In this document: positions 8,393 through 61,494 of the stretch, in pieces
Layout: each line of letters opens with the position of its first letter
Numbering within the stretch: position 1 is the first letter of the stretch
NCBI GenBank assembly: GCA_963995505.1
Contig: OZ023184.1
Span: forward strand, 1,922,001 to 1,986,000
From: Hypericum androsaemum
Taxonomy: Eukaryota > Streptophyta > Magnoliopsida > Malpighiales > Hypericaceae
Reading direction: 5' to 3'
Length of the DNA stretch: 64,000 nt
Made by a program: the position numbers and the translations under genes
The notes under the pieces: model-generated
Database searches by the model: none
What the model saw: the letters and a program-made list of their open reading frames with translations, nothing else
What the model was told of the DNA's origin: nothing

Positions 8393-8740
8393 GAGTGTGT
8401 GGACAAAGTTACCGACAAGGGACACAGGATCTTCATCTAGCCCACCTATGTCTTCGCTTCCAAACAGATCTCAGGGGATTGAATCAATAGTCAAGCTTGC
8501 TGTGGGTCGGAAGGGTCGGAGATGGGTTTAGAGAGGAGGTTGAAAATTGTGGGTTGGGGCTTGTGGAGGGTGTGGACAGAGTTACCGACAGGGGACACAG
8601 GATCTTCATCAAGCCCACCTATGTCTTCGCTTCCAAACAGATCTCAGGGGTTGAATCAATAGTCAAGCTTGTTGTGGGTCGGAAGGGTTGGAGATGGGTT
8701 TAGAGAGGAGGTTGAAAATTGTGGGTTGGGGTTAAATGAG
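8393..8740. repeat. Tandem duplication, about 173-bp unit
   Basis: Two near-identical copies (about 8393-8567 and 8569-8740) both contain gttaccgac, cacaggatcttcat, ccaaacagatctcagggg and gggtttagagaggaggttg in the same order, with scattered substitutions and a 1-bp indel. An open frame in each copy has no recognisable product. Confidence 0.85.
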
Positions 8741-11192: not shown

Positions 11193-12111
11193 TGTTGGGT
11201 TTGAATGAAAATTCAATGCAAGCCCAAAGTGGAAAGGCCCAAAAGGGAAATGAAAAATTGGAAAGTGGCACAAACATTTTCTAGTTTATAAGGAGGAAAT
11301 CCTTGTTGACTAGGAAATAAGTTGACCACCAGGAGGGAAAGCCAACTCGGACCGCACCATCCGAGCACGAGCACCATCCGAGCACGACCACGAGCACGCG
11401 CGTGTGAGTGTGAGTGTGCGTGTGGCGCATTGGACGCAGGTCGCAATGGGCGCTTTGTGACACACTTGGCACTTCGCACGTGCGCATCGTCTGGAGGAGC
11501 CTTAAGTATTTTGCCCGGGTCCGGAGAGAGCTGCGCAGCTACCGGAGTGACGAGGAGCTGCGAGCACCTTCAGGTTGGCCACCGAAGAGGCACGACGAGC
11601 AGTAATGTGCAGGAGACTTTCAGAAGGCCGAAGGGGTGCGAGATCCATCGCGAAAGGGCGCCAGTGCAGCCTGGGTGCGCCTGGAAGGATCCAGAAGTCA
11701 CCGAAGGGCCACGAGCGCAGCCAGCCAGCCTGCTGGCCGAGCGGACGCGTCCCTTCGGGGTGGCTGCCTCCCTGCCTCCTCCAGCCTATAAATAGGCCTG
11801 TCCCTTGCCATAATCCCTCATCCCAGCAGCAAGTGCATCCATAGCATTGTTGTCTTCTCCTCTCCCCCCGTTCTTCACTTCAAGAAAGTCAGTCCGAAAG
11901 TTCTGGGTATATAAGGGTTCGCCCGAAAGTTTCGAGATACGTGTGCAACGTTCTTGGAAATGCCCTAAACAGTTGTTGTATCTTGGGGACGATTGTCGAA
12001 GCCCGTACCGCACTGAAATATACGGGGCAATCTCGTCTTACGGAGAAAGTGTCCAACACTTGCCTCGACTGCCGTAGATCCTAATCAAGTACACCACTCC
12101 GTCAAACAACA
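11193..12111 (+). repeat. E1 5' LTR
   Basis: Starts tgttgggtttgaatg and ends caaacaaca. TATA box TATAAATA at 11787-11794. It differs from the 3' LTR by substitutions and by an extra block around 11470-11590 that the 3' copy lacks, showing an old insertion. A GAGCAC/GTGTGAGT low-complexity stretch lies at 11365-11420. Confidence 0.93.
12030..12042 (+). promoter_or_regulatory. E1 segment A: LTR sequence complementary to the primer-binding site
   Basis: atctcgtcttacg inside the LTR, 243 bp downstream of the TATA box. It is the exact reverse complement of 12114-12126 just outside the LTR. The 3' LTR copy is at 18007-18019. Proposed role: RNA primer or structural partner of the primer-binding site (inference). 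Confidence 0.75.
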
Positions 12112-12137
12112 ATCGTAAGACGAGATAGTGTACTTGA
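12112..12137 (+). promoter_or_regulatory. E1 primer-binding region, self-complementary (A' 12114-12126, B' 12128-12137)
   Basis: After the LTR end (CA at 12111) and the dinucleotide AT comes cgtaagacgagat (A'), the perfect complement of A at 12030-12042. Next to it gtgtacttga (B') is the perfect complement of tcaagtacac (B) at 12085-12094 in U5. The order A-B-A'-B' is an H-type pseudoknot. The usual plant copia site TGGTATCAGAGC is absent. The gag ATG starts at 12140, two bases after B'. Confidence 0.8.
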
Positions 12138-12139
12138 AG

Positions 12140-15100
12140 ATGGCATCGACAAGCTCAGCACCGATCCCCGGAACTGTCCACGCCGAAAGGCCGGCCAAGT
12201 TCAACGGTACCGAGTTCAAGAGATGGCAACAGAAGATGTTGTTCTATCTGACGACGCTCAACCTGGTCTGATTCTTGAAGTAAGAGGCTCCGAAGGTGGC
12301 AGAAAATGAGGCAGATCAACAGAAGATCAACGCCCTCGATGCATGGAGTTATATCGACTTCCTATGCCAGAACTATGTCCTGAATAGACTAGACGATACG
12401 CTCTATAACGTCTACACGGAAACCAAAACCGCTAAGGAGCTGTGGAGTTCACTCGAGAAGAAGTACAAAATAGAGGATGCCGGGACGAAAAAATTCATCG
12501 TCGGACGATTCCTCGACTTCAAGATGGTGGACTTCAAGAAGATCATCGACCAAGTGCAGGAGTTGCAGCTGATCCTTCACGAGATCCAAGCCGAAGGGAT
12601 GCAACTCAGCGAGTCCTTCCAAGTAGCTGCGATAATCGAGAAGCTCCCCCCGCTCTGGAAGGACTTCAAGAGCTACCTCAAGCACAAGAGGAAGGACATG
12701 GGCCTAGAAGACCTGATCGTGAGACTTAGGATCGAGGAAGACAACCGAAAGTCCGAAGTCAAGCAAGGCAAGGCCAACCCTGAGACCACCGTGCACCTCG
12801 CCGAGGGAAAAGGTAGCAAGAAGAGGAAGAAGTCCGAGGATAAGCGGGAGAAGCAAGAGCCCAAGAAGAAAAAGAAGATCAAGGGCGACTGCTACAACTG
12901 TGGCAAACCCGGACACATAGCTAAGGACTGTCGCCAGCCGAAGAAGGACGACCAAGGAAAGGCTAACCTGGCTGAAGACTTGTCCCAGATGGATCTGTCA
13001 GCTGTGGTATTTGAAGCCAACCTGGTGGATAATCTGAGAGAGTGGTTCGTGGACACTGGAGCTACCCACCACATTTGCTCGGACAAGGAGATGTTCTCGA
13101 GCTATATCTCGATCACCCGCCGAAAGTTGTTTATGGGAAACTCCGCAACGTCCAAGATCGTCAGTCTGGGAAAGGTGGTCCTGAAGCTGACCTCAGGAAA
13201 GGAGCTGACCCTCAAGAATGTACTGCATGTCCCGGACATCTGCAAGAACTTAGTTTCTGGCTTACTGTTAAGCAAAGCCGGTCTTAAGCTTGTATTTGAG
13301 GCTGATAAGTTTGTACTGACCAAAGCGGGTCAATTCATAGGAAAGGGTTATCTAGAGAGGGGGTTATTTAAGATGAATGTAATAACTGTACATCGCACAT
13401 TTAACAGTGAAAATAAAGTTAACGCTTCTTCTTACTTGGCCGAGTGTTCTAAGTTATGGCATGGTAGATTAGGACACGTAAATTTAAACTCGCTAAGAAA
13501 GTTAGTAAGTTTAAAATTATTACCGAATCTAGAGTTCAACCTATCCGATAAATGCGAAGTATGTGTGGAGGCTAAAATGACCAAAGTACCTTTCCATTCG
13601 GTGGAAAGAAGTGCTACACCTTTAGAGTTAATTCATAGGGACACTTGCGATATGAAACATGTGCAAACTAAAGACGGGAAGAAATACTTTATCACATTTA
13701 TCGATGATTGCACGAGATACTGTTACGTATATCTCCTAAAGGGCAAAGACGAAGCTCTTGATGCCTTTAAGAGATACAAGAATGAGGTTGAAAATCAACT
13801 CAACGTGAAAATTAAAATGATCTGAAGTGATCGAGGGGGAGAATATGTAGCTCCGTTTGATGAACTCTGTCGAGAACATGGCATTATTCATCAGACGACT
13901 GCTCCTTACTCACCTTAATCGAATGGCGTAGCTGAACATAAAAATTGAACTCTTAAGGAGATGATGAACGCTATGTTGATTAGCTCGAGCTTACCCCAGA
14001 ACATGTGGGGGGAAGCTGTGCTCTCAGCTAACCACATTCTAAACAAATTACCACACAAGAAAAGGGATAAAATCTCATATGAACTATGGAAAGGAAGGAA
14101 GCCTTCCTACGGTTACCTTAAAGTGTGGGGGTGCCTAGCAAAGGTCGAAGTACATAAGTCTAAGCAGGTCAGAATAGGACCCAAAACTATTGATTGCATC
14201 TTTATCGGATATGCACAAAATAGTAGTGCTTATCAGTTTTTGGTGCATAAATCTGAAAACCCTGAGATAAACGCGGGAATGGTCATAGAATAAAGGAACG
14301 CAACATTCTTTGAGAATATCTTTCCTAATAAGGAAAGAAAGGAAGGAAGTCCAAAGAAAAGGGCTCACGAGACTACGCAATGGTCAAATCAGGAAGATGA
14401 TGAACCTAGACATAGTAAATGGACAAAGGTAACCAAATCCTTTGGTCCGGATTATCTGACCTACGCGTTAGAAGATGAACCCAGGATAATCCAAGAGGCA
14501 TTGTCCTGTCCAGATGCTCCTCTCTAGAAGGAAGCTATCAATAGTGAGATAGAATCTATTATGCAAAACCACACGTGGAAAATTGTGGATCTTCCACCGG
14601 GCTGCAAACCTTTGGGATGCAGGTAGATCCTAAAAAGAAAATACAAAGCTGATGGATCAATCGACAAGTACAAAGCTCGATTAGTAGCTAAGGAATTTAA
14701 ACAGAAGGAGAGATATGATTTCTTTGACACGTATTCACCGGTCACAAGAATCACATCAATTAGAGTACTCATAGCTGTTACAGCACTCTATAACCTTGAG
14801 ATCTACCAAATGGATGTAAAAATAGCTTTCCTAAATGGAGAACTGGAAGAGGAGATATACATGGAGCAACCTGAAGGGTTTGTGGCTCCCGGTCAAGAGC
14901 ATAAAGTGTGTCAACTAGTTAAGTCACTATACGGGCTAAAACAAACGTCGAAACAGTGGCACGAGAAGTTTGACAGAACAATGCTGTCAAATAGATTTAA
15001 GATCAATGAGTGCGATAAATGTGTTTACATTAAGGGCACACCTGAAGCTTACGTAATTGTATGTCTCTACGTAGATGACTTACTAACTATGGGAAGCAAT

Positions 15101-16700
15101 AAAGAGGTTATTGTGAAAACTAAGAACATGTTAAAGAACCACTTTGACATGAAAGATATGGGTCTGGACAATCCAAGAGGCATTGTCCTGTCCAGATGCT
15201 CCTCTCTAGAAGGAAGCTATCAATAGTGAGATAGAATCCATTATGCAAAACTACACGTGGAAAATCGTGGATCTCCCACCGGGCTGCAAACCTTTGGGAT
15301 GCAGGTGGATCCTAAAAAGGAAATACAAAGCTGATGGATCAATCGAAAAGTACAAAGCTCGATTGGTAGCTAAGGAGTTCAAACAGAAGGAGGGATATGA
15401 TTTCTTTAACACGTATTCACCGGTCACAAGAATCACATTAATTAGAGTACTCATAGCTGTTACAGCACTCTATAACCTCGAGATCCACCAAATGGATGTA
15501 AAAACAGCTTTCCTAAATGGAGAACTGGAAGAGGAGATATACATGGAGCAACCTAAAGGGTTTGTGGCTCCCGGTCAAGAGCATAAAGTGTGTCGACTAG
15601 TCAAGTCACTATACGGGCTAAAACAAGCGCCGAAACAGTGGCACGAGAAGTTTGACAGAACAATGCTGTCAAATAAATTTAAGATCAATGAGTGCGATAA
15701 ATGTGTTTACATTAAGGGCACACCTGAAGCTTACGTAATTGTATGTCTCTACGTAGATGACTTACTAATTATGGGAAGCAATAAAGAGGTTATTGTGAAA
15801 ACTAAAAACATGTTAAAGAACTACTTTGACATGAAAGATATGGGTCTGGCAGATGTCATACTAGGAATAAAAATTTCTAGGAAAGCTGACGAAATTATCT
15901 TGACGCAATCCTACTACGTGGAGAGCGTGCTCAAGAAATTTGATGCTTTTGACAAACCTCCGGTTAAGACTCCAGTAGATTTGAATCTACACTTAGCCAA
16001 GAATCGAGGGGACCCAGTATCTCAAACGAGGTATGCATAAATTATCGGGAGCTTGATGTATTTAACAAACTGCACACGTCCTGATATTGCTTACTCAGTT
16101 AGTAAGCTTAGTAGATTCACAAGTAATCCAGGGAAGGATCACTGGCTAGCTCTGGAAAGGGTTTTACGGTACTTAAAACATACCATAAACTATGGCATAC
16201 ATTATGCTAAATATTCAGCTGTATTAGAAGGATACAGTGACGCAAACTGGATATCAGACACTAAGGACTCCAAATCCACGAGTGGATACGTATTCACCAT
16301 AGGAGGAGGAGTTGTGTCTTGGAAGTCCTCTAAACAAACGTGCATAGCTCGATCCACCATGGAGTCGGAGTTTATAGCGCTAGACAAAGCTGGGGAAGAA
16401 GCTGAATGGCTCAGAAACTTCCTAGAGGATATTCAGTGCTGGAGCAAACCGGTGCCTCCCGTATTGATACATTGTTATAGCATGTCTGCAATCGGTAGAG
16501 CACAAAGTACATTGTACAACGGAAAGTCTCGACATATCCGTCGGATACATAATACCGTTAGACAGTTGATCTTTAGTGGGGTGATCACCATTAATTACAT
16601 AAAGTCCAAGGACAACTTTGCTGATCCTTTTACGAAAGAAATCAATAGAGATCAAATGTACAATGCAGTAAGGGGAATGGGATTAAAATCCATACACTAA
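12140..16700 (+). pseudogene. E1 gag-pol polyprotein, broken
   Basis: The gag frame opens with MASTSSAPIPG at 12140 but meets TGA at 12269 and TAA at 12281, then is open from 12284 to 13822. Seen in order: gag core, basic Lys-rich tract, CCHC zinc knuckle [14 protein letters not shown] (about 12890-12931), aspartic protease DTG (13052-13060), integrase HHCC (WHGRLGHVN) and catalytic core, RT with YVDD (copy 1 near 15067, copy 2 near 15749), RNase H, and an end near 16700. Further stops: 13823 TGA, 13916 TAA, 13946 TGA, 14291 TAA, 14525 TAG, 14624 TAG, 16038 TAA. Several sit where CGA, CAA or TGG codons are expected, consistent with C-to-T decay of methylated DNA. It cannot encode a full polyprotein. 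Confidence 0.93.
14486..15849 (+). repeat. 682-bp tandem duplication of the RT region inside E1
   Basis: The block 14486-15167 is repeated at 15168-15849. Phrases such as aatccaagaggcattgtcc (14488 and 15170) recur at a constant 682-bp offset, and the join falls after ggtctgg. By eye there are roughly two dozen differences, mostly transitions. Copy 1 has a stop (14624) where copy 2 keeps Trp. The duplication puts two partial RT domains in series. Confidence 0.92.
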
Positions 16701-17243: not shown

Positions 17244-18096
17244 TGTTGGGTTTGAATAAAAATTCAATGCAAGCCCAAAGTGGAAAGGCCCAAAGTGGAG
17301 GCCCAAAAGGGAAATAAAAAGTGCAATCCCACATTGGAAAGTGGCACCAACATTTTCTAGTTTATAAGGAGGAAATCCTTGTTGACTAGGAAATAAGTTG
17401 ACCACCAGGAGGGAAAGCCAATTCGGACCGTGATGAGGATGGTGCGTAGCACCATCCGAGCACGAGCACGAGCACGAGCACGATCGTGCTCGTGCTCGCG
17501 CTCGCGCGTGTGCGTGTGCGTGTGCGCATGGCACATTGGTCGCAATGGGCGCAATGGGTGCTTTAGGCACGACGAGCAGGAATGTGCAGGAGACTTCCAG
17601 AAGGCCGAAGGGGTGCGAGATCCATCGGGAAAGGGCGCCAGCGCAGCCTGGGCGCCCCTAGAAGGATCCAGAAGCCACCGAAGGGCCACGAGCGCAGCCA
17701 GCCAGCCTGCTGGCCGAGCGGACGCGGCCCTTCGGGGTGGCTGCCTCCCTGCCTCCTCCAGCCTATAAATAGGCCTGCCCCTTGCCATAATCCCTCATCC
17801 CAGCAGCAAGTGCATCCATAGCATTGTTGTCTTCTCCTCTCCCCCCGTTCTTCACTTCAAGAAAGTCCGTCCGAAAGTTCTGGATATATAAGGGTTCGCC
17901 CGAAAGTTTCGAGATACGTGTGCAACGTTCTTGGAAATGCCCTAAACAGTCGTTGTATCTTGGGGACGATTGCCAAAGCCCGTACCGCACTGAAATATAC
18001 GGGGCAATCTCGTCTTACGGAGAAAGTGTCCAACACTTGCCTCGACTGCTGGACTGCCGTAGATCCTAATCAAGTACACCACTCCGACAAACAACA
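17244..18096 (+). repeat. E1 3' LTR
   Basis: Matches the 5' LTR from tgttgggtttgaat to caaacaaca. It carries an expanded GAGCAC tract that turns into its own inverse (GTGCTC) around 17455-17510, forming a GC-rich near-palindrome upstream of the TATA box. Confidence 0.93.
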
Positions 18097-24490: not shown

Positions 24491-25563
24491 GTTTGGATCC
24501 ATGTGACTAAACTTTTGGACTAAGCAGAAAACTGGATCTGGGTCCATTGATATCCTTATTTTTCTTTTTTTGGACTATTGCCGCATTTTTTTTTTTTCTT
24601 GAGGTGGGGAGCATTTGTTTTCAATTTTAATTATTTTTTTATAAGTATATTTTTGTTGTGACCTGGGGTTGAACTCGATCACTTCCAAGTTCTCACCCCA
24701 TTCTTCTCTTATATTACTAGAGCAAATGCCTTTTTGGTTTCAATTTTGATATCCTTATTTATCACTAATCAGTATTTATTAACAAAACATTTTTTCCATC
24801 ATTACGATTTATTTAGATATTATTAGAATGTGCAATAATGCGGCAATCATTTTCAAATTATCCTAAATTAGTTAAACAGTTAAAGAGTAGGTTGTATAGC
24901 ATTTTTATGAAATCGTGCATTTCTCCTAATACTTCAACCTTTCCAGAAAAGTTGGCCACTAATTTCAGAAAAGTGTAGTTACAACAAGTCTACGGCTTCT
25001 TTTTTGCTGCAGTACATCTCAGTTGCCAAAAAAATTGACTTTTTTTCCCATTAGAGACAAAAGGGCAGAGCTAGTAATTCATTGTCCTATTTGTGGAAGC
25101 ATGAAATGTAGTATTTACCGTATTAAATGGTGAATGAGTTGTTCTTTTATAATAAAGAGATCTCGAATTTGAATTCTTGAAAATAATATAATATTAAATA
25201 TTTTTTATAAAAATTTTATGATCATTCAAAAATTTTATTGATTTATAGTAATAATTTTTATGAATAATAAAATATTAATATTAAGAGTCGCTATTACTGG
25301 ATACTAACTCAAAATTGAGGATTAGGCCAGCATTTAAGCAACTAGCAATTCCAGGGTGGCGAGAGGTCTGGACAAATGTGGTAGGTGGAATCTTTTCAGG
25401 CTTTAATAAAGAGGCGGCGTGACTCCTGGTGGGGTTCAAATTCAGTGGGGATAGGGTAATCTCCACTGAAAAGGATAGGAGCAATATTAGAAATATAATA
25501 ATTAAAATAAATAAAAAATATCAGCAAAATAATACAAATTATGGAAATACAAGTATGAAAATA
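24491..25563. other. Intergenic AT-rich DNA
   Basis: Poly-T runs and AT-rich sequence without a supported gene or clear terminal repeats. Confidence 0.5.
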
Positions 25564-25952
25564 TTGGTTTCCATTCTCTCGGATATTGGTTTTCATCTTC
25601 TATGCTATTGGTTTCATTTTACTATGATATTGGTTTCATTCTACTATGATATTGGTTTCCATCTTCTATGTTATTGGTTTCATTCTACTATGATATTAGT
25701 TTCATTCTACTATGATATTGGTTTCCATCTTCTCGGATATTGGTTTCATTCTACTATGACATTGGTTTCATTCTACTATGATATTGGTTTCATTCTACCG
25801 TGATATTGGTTTTCATCTTCTCCAATATTGGTATCCCATTATAAGTAAAAATGTATATCATTTGAATGTATTGGTTTTATTCTTCTCGAATATTGGTATC
25901 ATCGTTCTAGGATATTGGTATCATTATACTTTAATATTGGTATCATTTCATC
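25564..25952. repeat. Minisatellite, 22-bp unit, about 16 copies
   Basis: Nearly every 22 bp a unit starts with ttggtttcat or ttggtatcat and ends tatgata or cggata. One unit near 25828 is longer and irregular. Because 22 is not a multiple of 3, any frame through it cycles with a 66-bp period, producing a repetitive apparent peptide that I do not consider a gene. The array abuts the MOS2-like pseudogene. Confidence 0.92.
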
Positions 25953-48142: not shown

Positions 48143-51100
48143 TCACAAGCTCAAACTTCTTGAAGTGAGTTTCTCTCCTTGTATTGTAACCTTCCAGCAA
48201 TCAACTTGGAGTACGAAAACAGATGATCTTTTAGGCACAACTGCGAGGAAATCAACAACAAATCAAGACTTCAGCACAAAAATCAAACGACAGAAGACAA
48301 ATGACAGATTATGTTGTTCTGCAGGCAATGCCACAAACAACTGAAAAGACAAATGACAACAGATTAAGTGCTTCTGCAGACGATGTCACAGGGAACTTTT
48401 ATATTCTTCGCAGTGCAGATTAACCAAAGCCACGCATGAAAGAGGACTGGTTTGACAGTGTAAACAAATACAAGTGCAATAAGTCAGAGTTCAGCACTGG
48501 GATGAAACAATATTACAAAAATGATGAAGGATTATTCAAGTTTTTCCGCAGACCATCATTTCAGGGTACTCTTCACGAGTGAAGTGGTGTACGGACACTA
48601 ATTAAAGCAGTTCTACGGGTCACTAACATAAATGCACAGAAACCTATGACCGAATGAAGTTGCTAAGCAGACCATTATTTTTTGGAGAACTTTTCTTGTG
48701 TTAAGTAGCATGCAACAGAACTAGCTAGAAGCACATAAAATGAGAGTGGCTTAAGTGCATGTTGAAGTGCCAAAGTCTCTACGCAGTAATGCCTTAACAA
48801 AGATACCGATTTTTGCATCAGCAATTCCATAACACCTAGACTAACAAAAAAGACACCAATTAAAGTTGCTGGCTTACAAGAAATCATAACTTTTGTTATT
48901 CAATTGACTGTTCAAAGAGCAAGAAGAAAAAGATGCATCACCTCTAAACTCATCATCCTGAGTAATTATTCCAAATGTTTCTGCAGTTTCGCGAATCATG
49001 ATACCACTAATGCCAGTGAAAGAAGCTATCTTACACTCAGCAACTGCCAGAAAATAGACAAACAGGTTAGATCCACAAAAGACTCAAGAAAAAAATAGTT
49101 TAATACACAAACAAACTACGGAGCTGGATAATGAAATGCCTATTATTAGGGGCTTGAAGCAATGTAGCAGACAAGGATCTCATCCAGTCAATATAGCCAC
49201 ACACTACACTCATACGAAAATAGAAAGACTGGTGAAAAGGAACGTCACTGGCCGAATTAGAGTTATGAAAAAGACCAATTAATGCATTCATAACTCTAGA
49301 AAGTTTGAATGCTATTAATCCATTTAGTACAATGACAAATTTCCAAGTGATAAATTGTTTAACACTTAATCGAGTAAAATTTAAATGACCATACCCGCAC
49401 ATAAAGAAAAAAAAAACCCACTTGGTGTCACTATGCAATGTTATGTCAGGAATTCACAAAGAGACCTGGCACCATAGAAGATGTTAAAGGCTCCACTAGG
49501 ACCTTGTGAAATCAAACCTTTCTCTGAAAGGCAATTTACACGTAGCACCTAACAAACTAAGTTGGTTTTGACAGAACCTTCGAGGTAGTACGCAGTTGTG
49601 AGCCTAGTTGTAAAAAGAAATCAAAACAGAACAGCCAGTACATAAAATTTTGAAATCAAATTGATGGGAGGAAAGACTACCAAGAACTATAGCACCATGC
49701 AGGTCCGCACTGAGAAGACACTGAGCCAGCTGATTTTTCCTGAAAGACGGCAGCAGACTATTGTTTAGGAAGCCAAGTGGTGGGATGATACCAAGCATGA
49801 CTGAACAACATACCCAGTAATTTTAAGAAGTTGAGCCATGTATCCTTTCCACATCTCATGCATTGGCTTGAAAACATCAAATCTGACACAAAACAAAAAC
49901 AGCAGCCATTTAAGTTACGAGGGAAGAACAAACAACTCAAGCAAGCATTCTTATGGATCAAATATTTTCTGTGGCATTCTTGTTATATCGCCATCTTAGA
50001 TAATATCCTCCACAGGGGAAGGAAAAATGAAAACTGTCTTTCACAGATGGGACATCGCTGAAGTCTCCAAATATCCTTCATTTAAACTAAATTGAAAGTA
50101 GATTATATAAGAAATACAGTACTAGTTCTACTACATCTGTTTATTTGATTAAAACATTATCAATCATGAAACACTGATAAGCTAAGAAAAAGGGGCAAAA
50201 CTTAAAATCTTGTATGGTATATTCAAGTCCTTGTACTGGTTCTACTACATCTGTTTATTTGATTAAAACATTATCAATCATGAAACACTGATAAGCTAAG
50301 AAAAAGGGGCAAAACTTACAATCTTGTATGGTATATTCAAGTTAAGAAGATGCAAGTCTAAAGACAGGGTCAAAAGGTTTGAACCTCCGGGTTCTACAAC
50401 AAGGACAGACTAACTCTCAAATCTACCACTGGGGACGAATAACTACACTTGTAGCTTGTGCTCGGTTCACACGCTTCTCAGCTAGAATCACAAAGGCTCT
50501 ATTAACATCATTCCTTGAACGTGGTAGATATAATTATAGTACAAAATTACTAATTTGCAAGATAAGCATATTAAAAACAGACATCATTTAGTGAAGTTTG
50601 ACAAAATAAGTCAAATGATAAATAAAATGGCAAGCACATATCATCCAAGCTTACTTTTGGGAATCTCGAGGGAGAACCAATGTCCCGCACTTCTTATGCT
50701 GTCTCATGGACATGTGCCTCTTGGAGCGTTTCGAATGGGTCCGGAGCGCCCTCACATGAGAGCTGGTAGATGGAGCTCGACCTTTCACAAAACTATCAAG
50801 GAGAATCCAATTATCAATCTTCATGCTTCTAGATCCCTGCATGTACTTCCCAGCAGAATCACCGTGCTGAAGAAGCTCATGTAAAACCTTATCCGCCATC
50901 CTTCCTTGCTTATTTTGAAGCTGCACAACACCAAAAACGCTAAGGCAACATGAACCGATGAACAGAATACACCGGACAAGCATGCAACGAACCATGGCAC
51001 CGTCGACTGCAGCAATGAGGTTCTCATCCACAGGATGCGAAAGCTGCAAGTAAGCTGATCCATTTTCCTCCGCGTCTGTTCAACACAGCCAAAATAATAC

Positions 51101-51521: not shown

Positions 51522-51779
51522 CTCCGGTGGCCGGAATACCAGGGGGCGGGGCGGGGCGGCGCAGCCCTGCGATGGATTTATTTGTTAGGTTTAACCTTTT
51601 CAGGGTTTAGTAATTATATAGGAAATATAAACTTTCAAAACGATGCCTGTATATTTCAGGATTTCGGAATACTCATAAACATTTTTTTGTCTATCGAATC
51701 TCGCTTTTAAAGGCATACGAATTGCTATAATTCAATTTGGCCAATTTTAACGACGACTTGATTTATAGCTTTGTCAATT
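51522..51779. other. POP4 upstream region
   Basis: A GC-rich block (ggggcggggcggggc near 51542) directly upstream of the start codon, then AT-rich DNA up to the E2 insertion. It leaves POP4 only about 260 bp from the retrotransposon. Confidence 0.5.
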
Positions 51780-52944
51780 TGTTGGAGAATTGGTTTATTA
51801 ACTAAGGAAGAGATGGTCCAATACAAGTGAGTGTATTGGGCTTTGGCCCAAATATTTAATTAGAGAGAGAATCCTAATTAAATATAATAATTAAGTAATT
51901 AGTGGGCAACTTTGAGGTAATTTAATTGAAGGTCACACCAATTGATTTTGGGTGTTTGTGAGATCAATACGAAGCTCGTTGATAGAGCTTCGTAACGATA
52001 TATAACACTTGCGAAAATCCAATTCTCGGGGTGAATGGAAATTGGCTTTAAAGTGGTATGGTTGTTATTAAAATAAGCACAATCCCACATTGGTTAGCGC
52101 ACCATGCTGAGACAAGTTTATAAGGGACTAGAAGTCTAGCATGGGTAAACTGGTGGAGAAGGGAGAGGCTCCTCGCGCCGTCCGTCCATTCGTCCGTCCG
52201 GCCCTGCTCGACTTGTATTGAATTGTGGGAATTGTGGGAATTGTTCCAGGTTCCAGGGCCTTATCTTTTTAGAACTGGGCCGGACTTGTTGTAGCGATCC
52301 TAGGCCCAAAAAGTCCTCTGGGCTTCTTGGACTTCCGTTTGGACAAGCCCACGTTCTAGAACCTTCTCTTGCCAACTGCCATTTGAATTTAAATTCGAAT
52401 TTTAAATTTATGAGAGTAACAGCCTATTTATGTTGGGAGTTTTATGGGTCTTGTAACAGCCCATTTAATGAGTGGGTTAATGGCCCTATTAAATCTGGAT
52501 TTGGCTGTTGGAAGTCCAAGGCTACCTATAAAAGGAGCCCACCTCCTTCATTCCAAATCACCCCAGCTCTTCATCTCTTCAGAGCTCTCTACTTCTCCCT
52601 CCTTAGCATAGCATTTCTCACTTTCATTGTGTCGGAGTTCTAAGGCTACGAAAGGTTCGAAATGTGTACTATAGTGCTTCCTATAGTACTCGGGATTGGG
52701 CGTTGTACCTTGGGAGCTCATTACCCACGGAGGCCTGAAGCATATAGGCGGGTAATAAGAGTTTAAGGACACACGATTAAACTGTGGCCTCGTCCAGAAT
52801 TCAATCCAAAACCTAACTTGAAGACGAAGGTGTTACACACTTACCTACAAGTGTGATCGTGAGCATTCTTTAAACTCCTCTCTTTATATGCTTACGATTT
52901 GTATTTACATACTCATGCCATAATTTACTAATATTTGTCCAACA
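51780..52944 (+). repeat. E2 5' LTR
   Basis: TATAAAA at 52527-52533. Contains segment A (52753-52767) and segment B (52922-52934). Compared with the 3' LTR it has a different sequence block around 52190-52345, where the 3' copy carries a GC-rich simple-repeat tract. Confidence 0.93.
52753..52767 (+). promoter_or_regulatory. E2 segment A: LTR sequence complementary to the primer-binding site
   Basis: taataagagtttaag, 226 bp downstream of the LTR TATA box, is the exact reverse complement of 52947-52961. The 3' LTR copy is at 60532-60546. Confidence 0.75.
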
Positions 52945-52981
52945 ATCTTAAACTCTTATTAACACGTGATATTAGTAAATT
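52945..52981 (+). promoter_or_regulatory. E2 primer-binding region, self-complementary (A' 52947-52961, B' 52969-52981)
   Basis: After the LTR end (CA at 52944) and AT comes cttaaactcttatta (A'), perfect complement of A. Seven bases later atattagtaaatt (B') is the perfect complement of aatttactaatat (B, 52922-52934). The order A-B-A'-B' and the AT spacer are the same as in E1, though the sequences are unrelated. No TGGTATCAGAGC site is present. Confidence 0.8.
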
Positions 52982-53245: not shown

Positions 53246-54264
53246 ATGGCTGATAACAACTCTCCCCCACACGAGATCAACAACTCCGGTGCGACGAACA
53301 CCACGAATGACAACTTGAACGAGGAGGTTCCTGTTGTGAGGACTAGCGGCGCTGAGGCCGTGATGCTGGGTCATAGACACCCAATGCCACTGCCGTACTC
53401 TCATCTTGAGAAACCGAAAAAGTTCAAGAGTGAAAATTTCAAGAGATGGCAACAAAAAATATTGTTCTACTTGACCGCCTTGAACTTTAGCCGGTATGTC
53501 AGGGAGGAGAAACCCAAAGAGAATGTGAGTGATCCGCTTCAAACCGCGATCCACAATGCATGGGTACATGAAGATTACCTATGTCGCAACTATATATTGG
53601 GTTCACTCGACGATTCGCTTTACGGCGTGTACTATACCAAAGAAACGTCTAAGGATCTTTGGGAATCGTTGGAGCACAAATATAAAGTTGACGACGCCGG
53701 TGCAAAGAAATTTGTGGCCGGGCGCTTCCACGACTATCGGATGGTCGATGGAAAGAGCGTTGTGGAACAATGCGAAGAGTTGCAATTGATCTTTCATGAT
53801 CTTGCAACGGAGGAAATGGCCATCAATGATGCCCTCCAAGTGGCGATGGTAATTGAGAAATTACCACCATCTTGGAAGGACTTCAAGATGTACCTCAAGC
53901 ACAAGAGGAAGAAGATGACTCTCGAGGACCTTATCCGAAGGTTGCGCATCGAGCAAGACAACCGAAAGGTTGATAAGAAACCAAGTGGCATGGTTGCTAA
54001 GGCCAATGTGGTCGAGACCGGGGGGAGCTCCCGTGGGAACAAGCGGAAATACTCAAATGATTCCAAGGGAGATGCTCAGAACAAGAGCTTTACTGGTGCC
54101 TGCTTTGTTTGCAACAAGACCGGCCATCGTGCCAAAGATTGCTACAAACGTTTAGCCGCGGAGGGTAAGAAGACGGCAGGACCAAGCAAGGGCAAGAAGA
54201 AGAAGCCTGCTAATGCTAACATTGTGGAGGCTAGCTTGAGCTCCGACCTCGATGAGATGTACCT
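53246..54264 (+). CDS. E2 gag (5' part of gag-pol), interrupted by the nested solo LTR
   Basis: Opens with MADNNSPPHEINNSG and is free of stops up to the insertion. Gag core residues match E1 (FKRWQQKILFYL, LWESLEHKYK, MVIEKLPPSWKDFK), followed by the zinc knuckle CFVCNKTGHRAKDC (about 54100-54142). The frame continues correctly beyond the insertion when the duplicated TACCT is counted once, so the gag was intact when the solo LTR's parent inserted. Confidence 0.92.
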
Positions 54265-55818
54265 TGAAAGGAAGGATTTTCACCCCTCTTGCAATAATGA
54301 GTAAGTACGGGATTGTCGTCCCACGAGGACTAAGCTAGTCCGCAAATTCGACTTTATCACTTGTTTAGGACTACTATGAATGGATTTGTCAATTCCAAAC
54401 ACAAAATGCTACTTGAAATAAAATTACAACTAAGCAAGGAGAAGGTTAAAACACTTAAAACAAGAGTGAGCTTGGTACCAATGACAACCTAAATAACCAA
54501 ATGGCATGTGGGGTTTATTGAGTTCGTGTTATGGTCCGGATGTTCCTTAAGCAACTAATCAACGCTCCCGCAACAAATTAGTCTAAATCGATAGTTAATT
54601 AGGCTTAGTCAAACCAACCGCGCTCCCGCGACTAATTAGCCAACTAATCCAACTAACTACCGATTATCACCATCATCCTTTGGACAACTAGTCACCTAAG
54701 GTGATCCCTCAACAATAGGCAACTAGTTAACTAGTTAAATGGTCCGTTAATCCTAACCCCTCCCGGCGATTAGCATCAACTTAGTTCATAATCGAGGTGA
54801 TCAATCAAGATTAGGCATTAAACACATTAACTAGTACATAAACCTTAACATATTATCCCCACAAAACCATTGGCTAAGTAGGTGCCATAAAGGCACCAAA
54901 CTCACAAATCAACTACTCACTCATGTTCAACAAACAACACAAATCATCCATTGAACAATGAGAATGAAACATGAACAAAGAGATAGAGTTTAGGAAAAGC
55001 TCAATGATGTCTTCAAGAGCTCCCTCCTAGCTCCTTCTTGGCCACGTTCTTCTTCTCTTCTCCTCTCCTCTTCTCTTGGTTGGCAGCCAAGTTCTTGGTT
55101 CTTCAAAGGGAGAGAGAGCCACGGAATTTTTGCTTGGAGGAAGGAAGAGTATGAGTGGTTGAATGGTGGTAGTCAAAGTATGGAGAAGTGGAGAGGGAGA
55201 TAGTGGGAGACAAAGTGGAGTAGTGGGAGACAAAGGAAGGTAGTGGAGTATGGGGAATTTGTAGTGGAAATCCAGCCAAAAGGTGGTAGGATGGCAGCCA
55301 AGAAAACGTCCTGGCAAATTCTGGAATGGTCCCAGAATTTTAGCCGATTTCGGTCAGGCGAGTTCTCAGGTTTAAAGCTCGTCTTCATGTGCATTTTTGA
55401 CCCTCTTAGACTTCGAATCTGAAGATGACCGAAGAAACAAAGTTGTATCCCCGGATGTCTTCTTTCCAGAACCACATCACTCGTCTCCATGGGACTTCAG
55501 ATGAGAAAGTTATCGGCATTTAAGTCTCTCGAGGTCAGTTAGCCTAATGTCGTCGCCTTCCCGATCGTGCACCATTCTTCAAGGCTGATCCGATCATCGT
55601 TGAAGCACTCCAACGTACACCAATATCCTCCCCGCATCACCACAAAGCCTCCTTGAAATAAAAATGAACAAAACTAATGAAAATCACAATAACTATACTG
55701 AAACGTTCAAAACACGAAATATAACAAAACAACGATAAATAACACACAACAATACTAGAAACAATGGACAATTGACACTAAAACACACATAGATGATAGA
55801 GTGTTTTCACACTCATCA
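54265..55818. mobile_element. Nested solo LTR (1554 bp)
   Basis: Begins TG (tgaaaggaagg) and ends CA (cactcatca), flanked by a perfect 5-bp duplication TACCT (54260-54264 and 55819-55823) of E2 gag sequence. No internal coding domain is present, so it is best read as a solo LTR left by LTR-LTR recombination. Its composition (long, CT- and GA-rich patches, 'tgatgagtgtgaaaacac' at the start on the minus strand) suggests a Ty3/gypsy element in antisense, which is an inference. Confidence 0.85.
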
Positions 55819-58800
55819 TACCTCACGACTGTTGTGTCCGAGGTGAACCTCGTGGGTGGGAACTCGAAGGAATGGTGGGTGGACACGGGGGCTACCCGCC
55901 ACATTTGTGCCAACAAATGGATGTTTAAGACCTATCAACCGGTCGATGATGAGAACTGCTACATGGGAAATTCTGCAGTCTCGAAGGTTGAAGGCAAGGG
56001 GACGGTCATGCTGAAGATGACCTCGGGCAAGGAGCTGACCTTGACTGATGTGCTGCATGTGCCCGAGATTCGAAAGAATCTTATCTCCAGAGTGGTGCTC
56101 AACAAAAGGGGCTTTCGGCTTGTGTTCGAGTCCGACAAGGTCATCATGTCCAAGGGAGGGATGTTCGTTGGCAAGGGCTACTTGACCAACAATCTTTTTA
56201 AGATGAGTGTAATGACTTTAGCTCCCAAGGCAAAGTCTAGTGATAAGATTGATGTGGGTGCCGCCAATAAGGCTAGCACGAGCAATAATGTAATGAATGT
56301 TGCCGATAAGGCCAATGAGAAAGTGAAGGTTGCTTATTCTCGGGATTCGTTATATTTATGGCATGGTAGACTAGGTCATGTGAACTACTTTGCAAAGGCT
56401 AATATCACTTAACCTACTACCAAAGTTTAACATCGATCACAAACATAAGTGCGAGACTTGTGTTGAGGCCAAGTACGCCAAAGCATCTTCCCACTCGATT
56501 GAGCGAAGCACGGAACCGTTGGATTTAATCCACACTGACGTATGTGATTTAAAATATGTACAAATGCGTGGCGGTAAAAATTATTTTATAACTTTTATCG
56601 ACGATTGTACGAGGTATTGCTATGTCTACTTGATGAGAAGTAAAGACGAAGCAATAGACATGTTCATTCACTATAAGAATGAAGTTGAGAACCAACTTGG
56701 CAAGAAGATCAAAAATCTTCGAAGTGACCGAGGTGGTGAATATGAATCTCCATTTGCACAAGTTTGTGCCGAGAATGGAATCGTTCATCAAACCACGGCG
56801 CCTTATTCTCCTGAGCAAAATGGAATTGCGGAAAGGAAGAATAGGACGCTTAAGGAAATGATGAATGCGATGCTTATTAGTTCCGGATTACCAAGGAATT
56901 TGTGGGGGGAAGCGGTGCTTTCGGCCAACTATGTGCTCAACAGGGTACCACATAAAAAGTTGGCTAAAACACCTTATGAATTATGGAAAGGTCATGCGCC
57001 TAGCTATAAATTCCGAAGGGTTTGGGGATGTCTTGCTAAGGTTCCGATCCCACCTCTTAAAAGGATAAGGATAGGACCCAAGACGGTGGATTGTGTGTTT
57101 ATCGGTTATGCACAAGATAGTGATGCATATCGATTTTTGGTACACAAGTCAGATAACTCTGATATCCACATAAATACTATCATAGAAGCTAGGGTGCTTC
57201 ATTCTTTGAGGAAAACTTTCCTCACAAAGCTCGAACTAGTGTTGACCGTCAAGTTGACTAAAGTGGAAGCAATGTGGGGGGAGAGGAACCTCAAGATGAA
57301 GTTGAAGAGCCTAGGCGTGGGAAAAGGGCTAGAAAAGAAAAGTCATTCGGATCAGATTTCCTAACATATCTGTTAGAAAAGGATCCAGTAACCTACAAAG
57401 AAGCAATGTCTTCTACAGACTCTGCTCTTTGGAAGGAAGCGGTGAATAGTGAGATAGAGTCTATCTTATATAATCACAGTTGAGAACTAGTAGATTTACC
57501 TCTGGGTAGTAAACCACTGGGCCATAAGTGGATCTTCAAAAAGAAGATGAAGCCTGATGGTACAGTGGATAAGTACAAGGCGAGACTTGTTGTTAAAGGC
57601 TACAAGCAAACTGAGGGTGTTGATTATTTTGACATATATGCTCCTGTCTCCAGAAAAATGTCTATTAGGTTAGTCATAGCCTTGGCGGCTTTGTTTAACC
57701 TAGAGATCCATCAAATGGATGTGAAAACGGCCTTCCTTAATGGAGATTTAGAAGAGAAGATTTACATGGAACAACCCGAAGAGTTTGTGGTTCCAGGTAA
57801 AGAACATAAGGTGTGTAAACTTGTAAAATCCTTGTATGGACTAAAACAAGCACCTAAACAATAACACGAAAAGTTTGATAGTGTAATGCTATCTAACGGG
57901 TTTCAGATAAACCAATATGATAAATGTGTCTACGTGAAAGGAGATGATAACAACTATGTGATAGTTTGTCTCTACGTAGATGACATGTTGATCGTGGGTA
58001 ACAATGATAATATCAAAATTATCAAGAAAATGTTATCACAAAATTTCGACATGAAAGACTTGGGACAAGCTGATGTAATACTTGGGATGAAAATCACCAA
58101 GACTTCAGAAGGTTACGCGCTTTCCCAAGGTCACTATGTCAACAAAATACTTGACAAATTCGATAAGAATAGCAATGTAATTGCGAGAACTCCTATGGAA
58201 GTGGTGTCGAGTCTCTGCAAGAATCGCGGAGAGAGTGTGAGACAACTAGAATATTCTAGAGTTATAGGCAGTCTAATGTACCTTATGGACTGTACTAGAC
58301 CAGATATTGCAAACTCGGTTAACAAATTATCGAGATATACGAGTAATCCTAATTATGAACATTGGAAAGCGATAGTTAGAGTCCTTAGATATCTAAGGTA
58401 CACTGCTAACTATAGATTACACTATACGAGACATCCAGCCATTCTGGAAGGGTATTCAGACGCGAACTAGATCTCGGACTCCAAGAATATAAAATCCACT
58501 AGCGGATACATATTTACATTTGGAGGAGCAGTGGTCTCGTGGAGATCATGCAAACAAATTTGCATTGCTAGATCAAATATGGAATCAGAATTCATAGCGT
58601 TGGATCTAGCAGCTGAAGAGGCGGATTGGCTCCGAAGTTTCTTGGAGGACATCCCGATGTGGTCAAAACCAGTGCCTCCCATTAGCGTGCACTGTGATAG
58701 TCAATCAACTATTGGAAGAGCACAAAATAATGTGTATAATGGAAAGTCTAGACACATACGTCGTAGACATAAATCCGTGAGAACGTTATTGAGAACGGGT

Positions 58801-58920: not shown

Positions 58921-59509
58921 CCTAAACCCATGATGGCAACCCAACCTGGATCGTAAATCCCGATCTGTAGGTTCAAAGGGACAACAGAATTGTGAGGCTA
59001 GGGTCGAACAAAGCACTCAGAAAATTGAGTTTCTTGCCTATTCCTATGATGGAAGAGTGATAGACCTGTCCATGTGAAGGTTAAGCTTTAAGCTTTTAAT
59101 GATCCTTATACTTCGAGTATATATATAAGTGGGGTATGGCAGGATACTCCTTATAAGAGATCACCTATATCGAATGTGAATGGGTCGCTTCTATGAGATG
59201 AGTTAAGGGCTAAATCTCTAGAGCATTCGATGAAGTTTCCAAGGCAGTCCAGGGCCAAAATGGACAACAACGAAAGAACCAAGTAGTGGTTTGAGAAGGA
59301 GTTGTGTGAGTACCTTTGTCTTCGTATACATGAAACGCTGAACAGTTCAAGGCATCACGTCTACTGGTTGGCAAGTATATCCGAAGGTATTTCACTAAGG
59401 AAGGTTCAAGGCTTTCAACCACCTTTCCTCATTCAATAAATTCTCGCAGAACTCCAAGTTGCATGTAGCATTGGTAGGCTCATATCATATATAAGCCAAT
59501 TTGCATTCA
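58921..59509 (+). other. E2 3' untranslated spacer
   Basis: Corresponds to the E1 spacer and ends at the polypurine tract. No ORF supported. Confidence 0.65.
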
Positions 59510-59519
59510 TGTGGGGGAT
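59510..59519 (+). promoter_or_regulatory. E2 polypurine tract
   Basis: tgtgggggat directly before the 3' LTR; identical to E1. Confidence 0.85.
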
Positions 59520-60723
59520 TGTTGGAGAATTGGTTTATTAACCAAGGAAGAGATGGCCCAATACAAGTGAGTGTATTGGGCTTTGGCCCAAATATTTAAT
59601 TAGAGAGAGAATCCTAATTAAATATAATAACTAAGTAATTAGTGGATAATTTTGAGCTAATTTAATTGAAGGTCACACCAATTAATTTTGGGTGTTTGTG
59701 AGATCAATACGAAGCTCGCTGATAGAGCTTCGTAACGATATATAACACTTGCAAAAATCCAATTCTCGGGGTGAATGGAAATTGGCTTTAAAGTGGTATG
59801 GTTGTTATTAAAATAAGCATAATCCCACATTGGTTAGCGCACCATACTGACACAAGTTTATAAGGGACTAGAAGTCTAGCATGGGTAAACTGGTGGAAAA
59901 GGGAGAGGCTCCTCGCGCCGTCCGTCCGGCCGGCCTGGCTCAGCTCGGCACGCACGCACGCACGCGCGCGCGCCCAGCCCCGTCCAGGACCGGGCCGGGC
60001 CCGGGCCCGGGCTCGGGCTCGGGCTCGAGTGCGGGTGCGGGTGCGGGTTGCGGGATTGTGAGTTTGTGGGAATTGTTCCAGGTTCCAGGGTCTTATCTTT
60101 TTAGAACTGGGCCGGACTTGTTGTGCCCACGTTCTGGAACCTTCTCTTGCCAGCTGCCATTTGAATTTAAATTCGAATTTTAAATTCATGAGAGTAACAG
60201 CCTATTTATGTTGGGACTTTTATGGGTCTTGTAACAGCCCATTTAATGGGTGGGTTAATGGCCCTATTAAATTCGGATTTGGCTGTTGGAGGTCCAAGGC
60301 TACCTATAAAAGGAGCCCACCTCCTTCATTCCAAATCACCCCAGCTCTTCATCTCTTCAGAGCTCTCTACTTCTCCCTCCTTAGCATAGCATTTCTCACT
60401 TTCATTGTGTCGGAGTTCTAAGACTATGAAAGGTTCGAAAGGTGTGCTATAGTGCTTCCTATAGTACTCGGGATTGGGCGTTGTACCTCGGGAGCTCTAT
60501 TACCCACGGAGGCCTGAAGCATATAAGCGGGTAATAAGAGTTTAAGGGCACACGGTTAAACTGTGGCCTCGTCCAGGATTCAATCCAAAACCTAACTTGA
60601 AGACGAAGGTGTTACACACTTACCTACAAGTGTGATCGTGAACATTCTTTAAACTCATCTCTTTATATGCTTACGATTTGTATTTACATACTCATGCCAT
60701 AATTTACTAATATTTGTCCAACA
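59520..60723 (+). repeat. E2 3' LTR
   Basis: Matches the 5' LTR at both ends. It carries a GC-rich tract of CACG, CG, GGGCCC, GGGCTC and GGGTGC repeats at about 59945-60055 that the 5' LTR lacks. Confidence 0.93.
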
Positions 60724-61494
60724 TTTTTTATTCTGATTATATTTCTCTAAGTTCAAAATTTTCAATCACATTCATTATGGGTAAATCATACAAGAAGATG
60801 GGCAACTCAACTTGTACGTGAACAATCATAAAATATCAACATTATTAGCATATATGGGCATAAGGTTAAAACGATAGGAGAGAACATTTTATTGTCATTT
60901 CGGATAAGAACATTTGTTGACATTACCATCCTCTCAACATTTTCAACATCATGTTTGCTATTAGTGGTAACATGTTTTATATCTTTATTCAAACGACTTA
61001 TAATTAAATTAAAATAACTCATTCTTCATAAGCATTTTGATTGTAATATTACGTATATAAGATACTTAGAGTTATTGATAATAACCGTTAATTAATATTT
61101 AAAGTAACATTTTTTTAATGTTTTCCGAATTGGTTAAGTCTAAAATTAGTAAGTTCTCTGACTTTACAAATATAATTTTGACATATTACAGTAAAATTTC
61201 TGTAAAGTGATCATCTCTAAAATGTTAACTCTTCTAAATTGATAAAAAGTTATGGTCTCGAGTAGGGACCTGTGTTAAAATTTAATAACTCTTCTATCAT
61301 AATAACTAATATTTTTTTCAAAAAATAAATAGGACTATCATATTTGCTAACCAGGTCTCCTTAAAATAATTAAGAATGTGCTACGAGAAACACTATACGG
61401 ACCTTGCTAATTAACTTACTCAAGATTGCACAAGAAAAGCCAAAAAATGACGCTAATTTGTTGATAAATTTGCACCTCTCTAGAATAAAAATTT
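60724..61494. other. Intergenic AT-rich DNA
   Basis: No supported gene or repeat. Confidence 0.5.

What the first reader, a model, noticed from the sequence alone, without database searches (positions are those of the whole stretch)
52753..52961. E2 shows the same self-complementary primer site with unrelated sequence (15 nt)
Seen: 52947-52961 is the exact reverse complement of 52753-52767, again starting 2 nt after the LTR end, again with AT as spacer, again extendable by a G-U pair (52768 with 52946), and again about 225 nt downstream of the TATA box. The A/A' sequences of E1 and E2 are unrelated although both elements share PPT and protein lineage. Two independent solutions with preserved pairing are the signature of compensatory evolution. 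By simple counting, a chance 13- or 15-mer complement at this fixed position in both elements is very unlikely.
Basis: partly seen in the sequence, partly recalled or inferred. Interest (0 to 1): 0.9.

Follow-up and report, generated by a model that had tools for sequence, protein, structure and literature searches.

The report
Self-priming site in plant retrotransposon
Two related plant jumping genes carry, right after their first end-repeat, a short stretch that matches in reverse a stretch inside that same repeat, so their own RNA probably serves as the starter for copying itself into DNA; this kind of self-starting was already predicted for one plant group, and here it comes with extra structural and mutational evidence.

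Summary
In E2, 52947-52961 is the perfect reverse complement of 52753-52767 and starts 2 nt after the 5' LTR; E1 has an unrelated 13-nt pair at the corresponding place. Chance is unlikely: 0 (E1) and 1 (E2) of 20,000 resamplings, and no sampled 45-mer elsewhere in the window, reach these lengths. Best explanation: self-primed reverse transcription, in which LTR segment A pairs with A' (the primer binding site), is cut and primes. I add: (1) a second helix between U5 and the leader just 3' of A', crossing A:A', with unrelated letters in E1 and E2, like one duplex of the Tf1 'pretzel'; (2) in 20 close E2 copies A' 1-12 is unchanged but A' 13-15 is a mutation hotspot, suggesting that A' is recopied from the primer, which could explain the match without compensatory selection; E1 shows this only weakly; (3) A lies 226-243 nt below the TATA box, apparently not at the RNA 5' end as in Tf1. 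Only two superfamilies of one genome were compared.

The parts
51780..52944 (+). E2 5' LTR (TGTTGG...CCAACA)
   Evidence: self-BLAST pairs with 59520-60723, 96.6-96.7% identity over the two longest blocks; ends read
52527..52532 (+). TATAAA of the E2 5' LTR
   Evidence: same motif at 60305 in the 3' LTR; function recalled, not tested
52721..52755 (+). hairpin I, TTACCC/GGGTAA, ends where the 12-nt core of A begins
   Evidence: pair probability 0.98-1.0 when the LTR part is folded alone, 0.3-0.46 with the leader, about 0.05 in the long fold
52753..52767 (+). A: candidate self-primer in the LTR (12-nt core 52756-52767)
   Evidence: exact complement of A'
52922..52934 (+). U5 arm of the U5-leader stem
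   Evidence: 13-bp complement of 52969-52981; 4 changes in 260 cells, not clearly fewer than the rest of U5
52945..52946 (+). AT spacer between LTR end and PBS
   Evidence: 0 changes in 20 E2 copies, but TT in L052 and L057
52947..52961 (+). A': primer binding site (core 52947-52958; variable tip 52959-52961)
52969..52981 (+). leader arm of the U5-leader stem
   Evidence: 0 changes in 260 cells over 20 copies; a stem of 8-17 bp in 37 of 37 contexts examined
53246..54304 (+). E2 gag ORF (Retrotran_gag_2, CCHC zinc knuckle)
55801..57364 (+). E2 pol pieces (BBD, GAG-pre-integrase, integrase core), two ORFs as they stand
59509..59519 (+). likely polypurine tract of E2 (ATGTGGGGGAT)
   Evidence: identical letters before the E1 3' LTR
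59520..60723 (+). E2 3' LTR
11193..12111 (+). E1 5' LTR
12002..12026 (+). E1 hairpin I, CCCGTA/TACGGG
   Evidence: pair probability 0.86-0.99 when the LTR part is folded alone, 0.29-0.44 in the long fold
12030..12042 (+). E1 A
   Evidence: 9 changes in 377 cells
12085..12094 (+). E1 U5 arm
   Evidence: 10-bp complement of 12128-12137; 1 change in 290 cells
12114..12126 (+). E1 A' (PBS)
   Evidence: 6 changes in 377 cells
12128..12137 (+). E1 leader arm
   Evidence: 2 changes in 290 cells

Best explanation
E1 and E2 are plant Ty1/copia retrotransposons that start reverse transcription from their own RNA. Shown in sequence: segment A, inside the 5' LTR and 226-243 nt below the TATA box, is complementary to A', which begins 2 nt after the LTR. 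A U5-leader stem just 3' of A' can hold A' in its loop and crosses the A:A' helix. Inferred: A pairs with A'; the RNA is cut right after A (after 52767 or 52768; E1 after 12042 or 12043), as RNase H does in Tf1; the 3' OH copies AT and U5 back to the cut, predicting strong-stop DNAs of about 179 nt (E2) and 71 nt (E1); this DNA transfers to the 3' LTR. Plus-strand synthesis later copies the end of the primer, which rewrites A' from A each cycle and leaves a ragged, mutation-rich tip at A' 13-15.
For: Exact pairs at the same place in two families, beyond chance; own-LTR match only; 54 of 60 gag-anchored loci carry A and A' (at most 2 mismatches each, 40-400 nt apart) and 0 of 60 an initiator-Met-type PBS; complement of 12-17 nt in 41 of 44 distinct E2-superfamily contexts although the PBS-to-gag-query distance varies from 425 to 875 nt; U5-leader stem beyond letter shuffles of the leader in both (E1 1 of 2,000, E2 0 of 2,000), and a stem of 8-17 bp in 37 of 37 contexts examined, at least 10 bp in 34; E1 arms 3 changes in 580 cells against 110 in 2,465 for other U5/leader columns, E2 leader arm 0 in 260 against 13 in 580; hotspot A' 13-15 in E2, 9 of 80 cells, against 0 of 240 in A' 1-12 and 13 of 580 in the leader. 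Published: TAR elements predicted self-primed (PMC6317226); Tf1 self-primer and pretzel (PMC7175516, PMC10085805).
Against: No RNA, cDNA or protein data. Only two superfamilies of one genome, so no formal covariation test. In nested folding A:A' and the U5-leader stem compete: E1 A:A' probability is about 0-0.03 and E2 about 0.47-0.61 in the core, so both must coexist as a pseudoknot or alternate. The E1 leader as a whole does not fold clearly better than shuffles (z -1.47, 7 of 100 as good); E2's does (z -4.67). The second side duplex of the Tf1 pretzel (LTR end with post-A sequence) is not better than shuffles. Six of 60 loci lack a clear A/A' pair. E1's A' is not invariant (6 changes in 377 cells, A 9 in 377) and its hotspot is one base (4 of 29 copies). 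E2's U5 arm changes about as often as the rest of U5 (4 of 260 against 60 of 3,160). Stems of 8 bp or more occur in 384 of 4,908 60+60-nt windows, so the shortest of the 37 are not remarkable singly, and their letters are shared by descent. The E2 hotspot rests on 20 related copies chosen by similarity to this leader; cells are not independent.
Confidence: 0.85

Rival explanations
1. The A/A' match is only a structural or packaging hairpin; priming is by a host RNA (tRNA fragment or other small RNA) whose end resembles A.
For: Half-tRNA primers are known in other plant copia lineages (PMC6317226); the U5-leader stem could have a packaging role (inference).
Against: A' starts CGT (E1) or CTT (E2), not the TGG complementary to a tRNA CCA end; A' letters differ wholly between E1 and E2 yet each matches its own LTR; exact placement 2 nt after the LTR end. 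No plant tRNA set could be compared (the tRNA search did not complete), so an internal or half-tRNA match is not excluded.
Confidence: 0.08
2. The primer is A, but A is the true 5' end of the RNA, exactly as in Tf1, because transcription starts at A and not below the TATA box. (A sub-case of self-priming; its odds lie inside the 0.85 of the best explanation.)
For: The copied part of A' ends within about 12-17 nt, as if the primer were short; Tf1 uses the first 11 nt of its RNA (PMC7175516).
Against: Each 5' LTR has one exact TATAAA, 226 and 243 nt upstream of A, and no other (only the exact hexamer was sought); hairpin I directly upstream of A could equally stop copying.
Confidence: 0.15
3. 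Chance or a one-off inverted duplication that each family inherited without function.
For: Within a superfamily the letters are mostly identical by descent.
Against: in E2 copies A' 1-12 has 0 changes in 240 cells against 60 in 3,160 for the rest of U5, while the leader has turned over. In E1 A' this contrast was not tested.
Confidence: 0.02

Closest known systems
TAR lineage of plant Ty1/copia (incl. Houba, Osr-1; GyDB Fourf)
   Same: Self-primer in the 5' LTR complementary to a site 0-5 bp after it (criterion in PMC6317226); plant copia gag/pol
   Different: Nothing found that contradicts; the U5-leader stem, internal position and A' tip hotspot were not mentioned in the passages and sections I read
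Tf1/sushi chromoviruses (Tf1, Tj1, Tosmo)
   Same: Self-primer:PBS duplex plus a duplex between the PBS 3'-adjacent sequence and LTR sequence downstream of the self-primer (pretzel; PMC10085805, passages)
   Different: Ty3/gypsy, not copia; self-primer is the first 11 nt of the RNA (PMC7175516, passages), here 226-243 nt below the TATA box; the other pretzel side duplex was not found
Copia elements with tRNA-Met or half-tRNA PBS
   Same: PBS just after the LTR
   Different: No initiator-Met-type PBS (one 12-mer, at most 1 mismatch) in 60 of 60 gag-anchored loci; half-tRNA types were not tested

Membership tests
Ty1/copia (Pseudoviridae) | copia-type gag, integrase before RT, LTRs | tested here: met
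   Retrotran_gag_2, Pol_BBD, rve in pieces of both; RVT_2 in E1's piece 15243-16040, downstream of integrase (E2's RT region was not scanned); LTR pairs
TAR lineage | Self-primer: at least 10 bp complement between the 5' LTR and a site 0-5 bp after it | tested here: met
   13 and 15 nt at offset 2; criterion from PMC6317226 methods
TAR lineage | RT-RH-INT phylogeny inside the TAR clade | not testable with these tools
   no labelled lineage references (REXdb) on hand; supplements capped at 0
Tf1-type self-priming | Self-primer is the 5' end of the RNA | tested here: inconclusive
   TATAAA lies 226-243 nt upstream of A; no transcript data
Tf1-type self-priming | Pretzel: PBS 3'-adjacent sequence pairs with LTR sequence downstream of the primer | tested here: met
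   10 and 13 bp; 1 and 0 of 2,000 letter shuffles of the leader reach them
Tf1-type self-priming | Pretzel: PBS 5'-adjacent sequence pairs with LTR sequence downstream of the primer | tested here: not met
   best 4 bp in both, reached by 50% and 75% of shuffles with Watson-Crick pairs
Tf1/sushi chromovirus | Ty3/gypsy polyprotein with chromodomain | tested here: not met
   copia-type domains in the five ORF pieces scanned, integrase before RT; the whole polyprotein was not scanned
tRNA-primed copia | PBS starting TGG, complementary to a tRNA 3' end | tested here: not met
   A' starts CGT/CTT; no initiator-Met-type PBS with at most 1 mismatch in 60 of 60 loci (the 12-mer is recalled)

The most novel reading that the evidence does not exclude
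TAR-type copia elements use a self-primer cut from deep inside the transcript (a 5' fragment of about 210-225 nt) rather than the RNA's 5' end. They have arrived, in a different superfamily from Tf1, at the same crossed RNA topology (primer:PBS plus PBS-flank:U5). And the A/A' match is maintained mainly by copying of the primer each cycle, which leaves a readable mutational scar at the primer's copied end.
Probability: 0.45. Interest if true: 0.7.

Novelty: new member of a known kind. Interest (0 to 1): 0.5.

Why it matters
Self-priming in plant copia elements appears in the literature I could read only as a sequence-based prediction. The two families here give exact predicted cut sites, strong-stop lengths (about 71 and 179 nt), a second helix to probe and a possible mutational footprint of primer copying, so the prediction becomes directly testable. 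They also show why A/A' covariation alone is weak evidence: if A is the primer, the replication cycle itself enforces the match.

Tried and rejected
Relatives outside the genome: viral contigs with E2 gag (1 pattern stretch, none confirmed) and with a 31-sequence gag alignment (123 pattern stretches, none confirmed); genome contigs (187 stretches, none confirmed). A third gag query in the own genome (P0108) returned places, many of which overlap the (E1) list by eye (not counted), without sequences. So no third family was obtained and no R-scape-type test was possible.

Hairpin II directly 3' of A: looked attractive by eye (note), but in E2 its inner stem has a probability of only 0.12-0.19 and its proposed outer pairs 0.0; in E1 it is 0.8-0.99 with the leader and about 0.2 without; not claimed. 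The LTR-end:post-A duplex: no better than shuffles. Rfam: no match in the window at gathering scores. ARAGORN: no tRNA in the window. Compensatory changes inside a superfamily: none seen; A and A' differences there look like decay of single copies.

A scan of the window plus the 89 loci (357,200 bases, loci partly overlapping, both strands) for CAAT followed by an 11-mer complementary to 55-400 nt upstream gave the E1 and E2 words in 20 and 47 places and four other words in 1-2 places each, taken as chance or artefact. Six control 4-mers were run on the window only and gave 0, 0, 0, 0, 0 and 2.

Rows dropped before counts: one search keeps only places with an exact AATCTTAAACTCTTA and an exact 12-nt A core (37 distinct contexts), so A' identity there is by construction; relaxes A' (44 contexts) but still requires the AT spacer and the first 9 letters of A'. 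L052 and L057, with a TT spacer, fall outside both. One search keeps 29 of 30 E1 loci and 20 of 20 E2 loci. Its 80 cells for A' 13-15 are 4 columns, one of them a gap column. Loci without a clear A/A' pair: L035, L039, L048 (E1); L066, L067, L085 (E2).

Full report
What is there. E2 is a Ty1/copia LTR retrotransposon on the + strand: 5' LTR 51780-52944, gag ORF 53246-54304, pol pieces from 55801, 3' LTR 59520-60723, LTR identity 96.6-96.7% over the two longest blocks. The stretch 52947-52961 is the exact reverse complement of 52753-52767 and starts 2 nt after the LTR. E1 (5' LTR 11193-12111, 3' LTR 17244-18096, target-site duplication ATAAT) has a 13-nt pair, 12030-12042 with 12114-12126, also 2 nt after the LTR. 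Gag of the two is 57% identical over 154 aa. The PPT letters are the same.

Chance. Allowing A' to start 0-5 nt after the LTR and A to lie anywhere in the LTR, 0 of 20,000 first-order Markov resamplings of the leader reach E1's 13 nt and 1 of 20,000 reaches E2's 15 nt; 0 of 8,720 and 0 of 8,685 45-mers from elsewhere in the window do. Each PBS matches only its own LTR.

Copies in the same genome. The window lies in a 385-Mb genome. Gag queries scored 150 of 5,823 (E1) and 150 of 6,158 (E2) first-look candidates, so counts of copies are lower bounds. Of the 30 loci cut out per query, 27 of 30 and 27 of 30 carry A and A' with at most 2 mismatches each, 40-400 nt apart; 0 of 60 carry an initiator-Met-type PBS. 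In the E2 superfamily the PBS-to-gag-query distance ranges from 425 to 875 nt and the leader letters turn over, yet complementarity is 12-17 nt in 41 of 44 distinct contexts (15 nt in 27). Two E2-type copies (L052, L057) have TT instead of AT as spacer and are not in that count.

A second helix. In both elements the sequence just 3' of A' pairs with U5: E1 12085-12094 with 12128-12137 (10 bp), E2 52922-52934 with 52969-52981 (13 bp). Shuffled leaders reach these lengths in 1 and 0 of 2,000 trials. Of 4,908 60+60-nt windows taken along the window, 66 reach 10 bp or more and 8 reach 13 or more. The letters are unrelated between E1 and E2. In 37 of 37 E2-superfamily contexts examined a stem of 8-17 bp is present (10 bp or more in 34) although its leader arm moves by up to 13 nt relative to the LTR end and the rest of the leader differs. 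The arm letters are largely shared, so these contexts are not independent, and in L078 and L082 the register shifts. In E1 the arms show 3 changes in 580 cells against 110 in 2,465 for other U5 and leader columns; in E2 the leader arm shows 0 in 260 against 13 in 580 for the later leader, but the U5 arm (4 in 260) is not clearly more conserved than the rest of U5 (60 in 3,160). The helix crosses A:A', so together they would form a pseudoknot. In nested folding the two compete (E2 core 0.47 against 0.53 in the short fold, 0.61 against 0.39 in the long one; E1 strongly favours the U5-leader stem), so a switch is also possible.

A footprint at the end of the primer. In 20 close E2 copies A' 1-12 shows 0 changes in 240 cells, A' 13-15 shows 9 in 80 (7 of 20 copies), the following loop 1 in 140, the leader arm 0 in 260 and the later leader 13 in 580. 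The same three bases in the LTR copy of A show 0 in 60. In 29 E1 copies the pattern is weaker: the base right after A' varies in 4 of 29, A' itself has 6 changes in 377 cells and A 9 in 377. The E2 pattern is what is expected if plus-strand synthesis copies the 3' end of the primer into A' and stops raggedly. Hairpin I (TTACCC/GGGTAA in E2, CCCGTA/TACGGG in E1), which ends at the 12-nt core in E2 and 3 nt before A in E1, could be the stop; its pair probability is 0.86-1.0 when the LTR part is folded alone, but about 0.05 (E2) and 0.29-0.44 (E1) in long folds. Caveats: the copies are related, the E2 ones were chosen by similarity to this leader, and the cell counts are not independent.

How it would work. 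A pairs with A'; cleavage just 3' of A gives a primer end; synthesis copies AT and U5 back to the cut, giving about 179 nt (E2) or 71 nt (E1); transfer to the 3' LTR restores A. The 5' fragment left as primer would be about 210-225 nt if transcription starts about 30 nt below the TATA box (52527, 11787). Cleavage, transfer and the start site are inferred. If A is the primer, the A/A' match is renewed by copying, so two unrelated pairs do not by themselves prove compensatory mutation. The U5-leader stem, whose leader arm is not copied from U5, is the better structural evidence.

Comparison. Neumann et al. 2019 (PMC6317226; abstract, passages and sections 13 and 20 read; [quoted passage not shown] Tf1 uses the first 11 nt of its RNA and RNase H cleavage (PMC7175516, passages). 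Its RNA forms a three-duplex pretzel: self-primer with PBS, and two duplexes between PBS-adjacent and LTR sequences downstream of the primer (PMC10085805, passages). E1 and E2 meet the PBS 3'-adjacent duplex; the PBS 5'-adjacent one is no better than shuffles. In the listings of searches, and the passages I opened, I saw no paper describing such a structure for plant copia; most subscription papers are not held, and the TAR supplements could not be read.

Verdict. Real, functional-looking, and a new member of a known kind: a self-primed, probably TAR-lineage copia. The internal position, the pretzel-like helix and the copying footprint are the parts worth following up.

Noticed in passing
54305-55820: About 1.5 kb without a long ORF interrupts the E2 frame between gag and pol; 13 of the 23 gag places that score 433.8 bits lie in open frames of 1,371-1,374 codons, so this looks like an insertion in this copy.
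   Followed up: no
51765-51779 and 60724-60740: No matching target-site duplication flanks E2 (CAATT before, TTTTT after), unlike E1; perhaps a recombinant copy.
   Followed up: no
14484-15167 and 15166-15849: Head-to-tail duplication of about 684 bp (96.2%) inside the E1 pol region.
   Followed up: no
25517-25947: Minisatellite array with 22-bp period.
   Followed up: no
L066 and L067 (G000:C5:19992063-19994275): Two E2-superfamily gag copies lie head to head with a long inverted repeat covering leader and gag start.
   Followed up: no
one search list: 23 E2-superfamily gag places share the same score (433.8 bits), which suggests a recent burst; LTR ages were not measured.
   Followed up: no
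L052 and L057: Spacer between LTR end and PBS is TT instead of AT.
   Followed up: no
8393-8559 and 8566-8731; 50119-50228 and 50233-50342: Short tandem duplications (95.8% and 98.2% identity).
   Followed up: no
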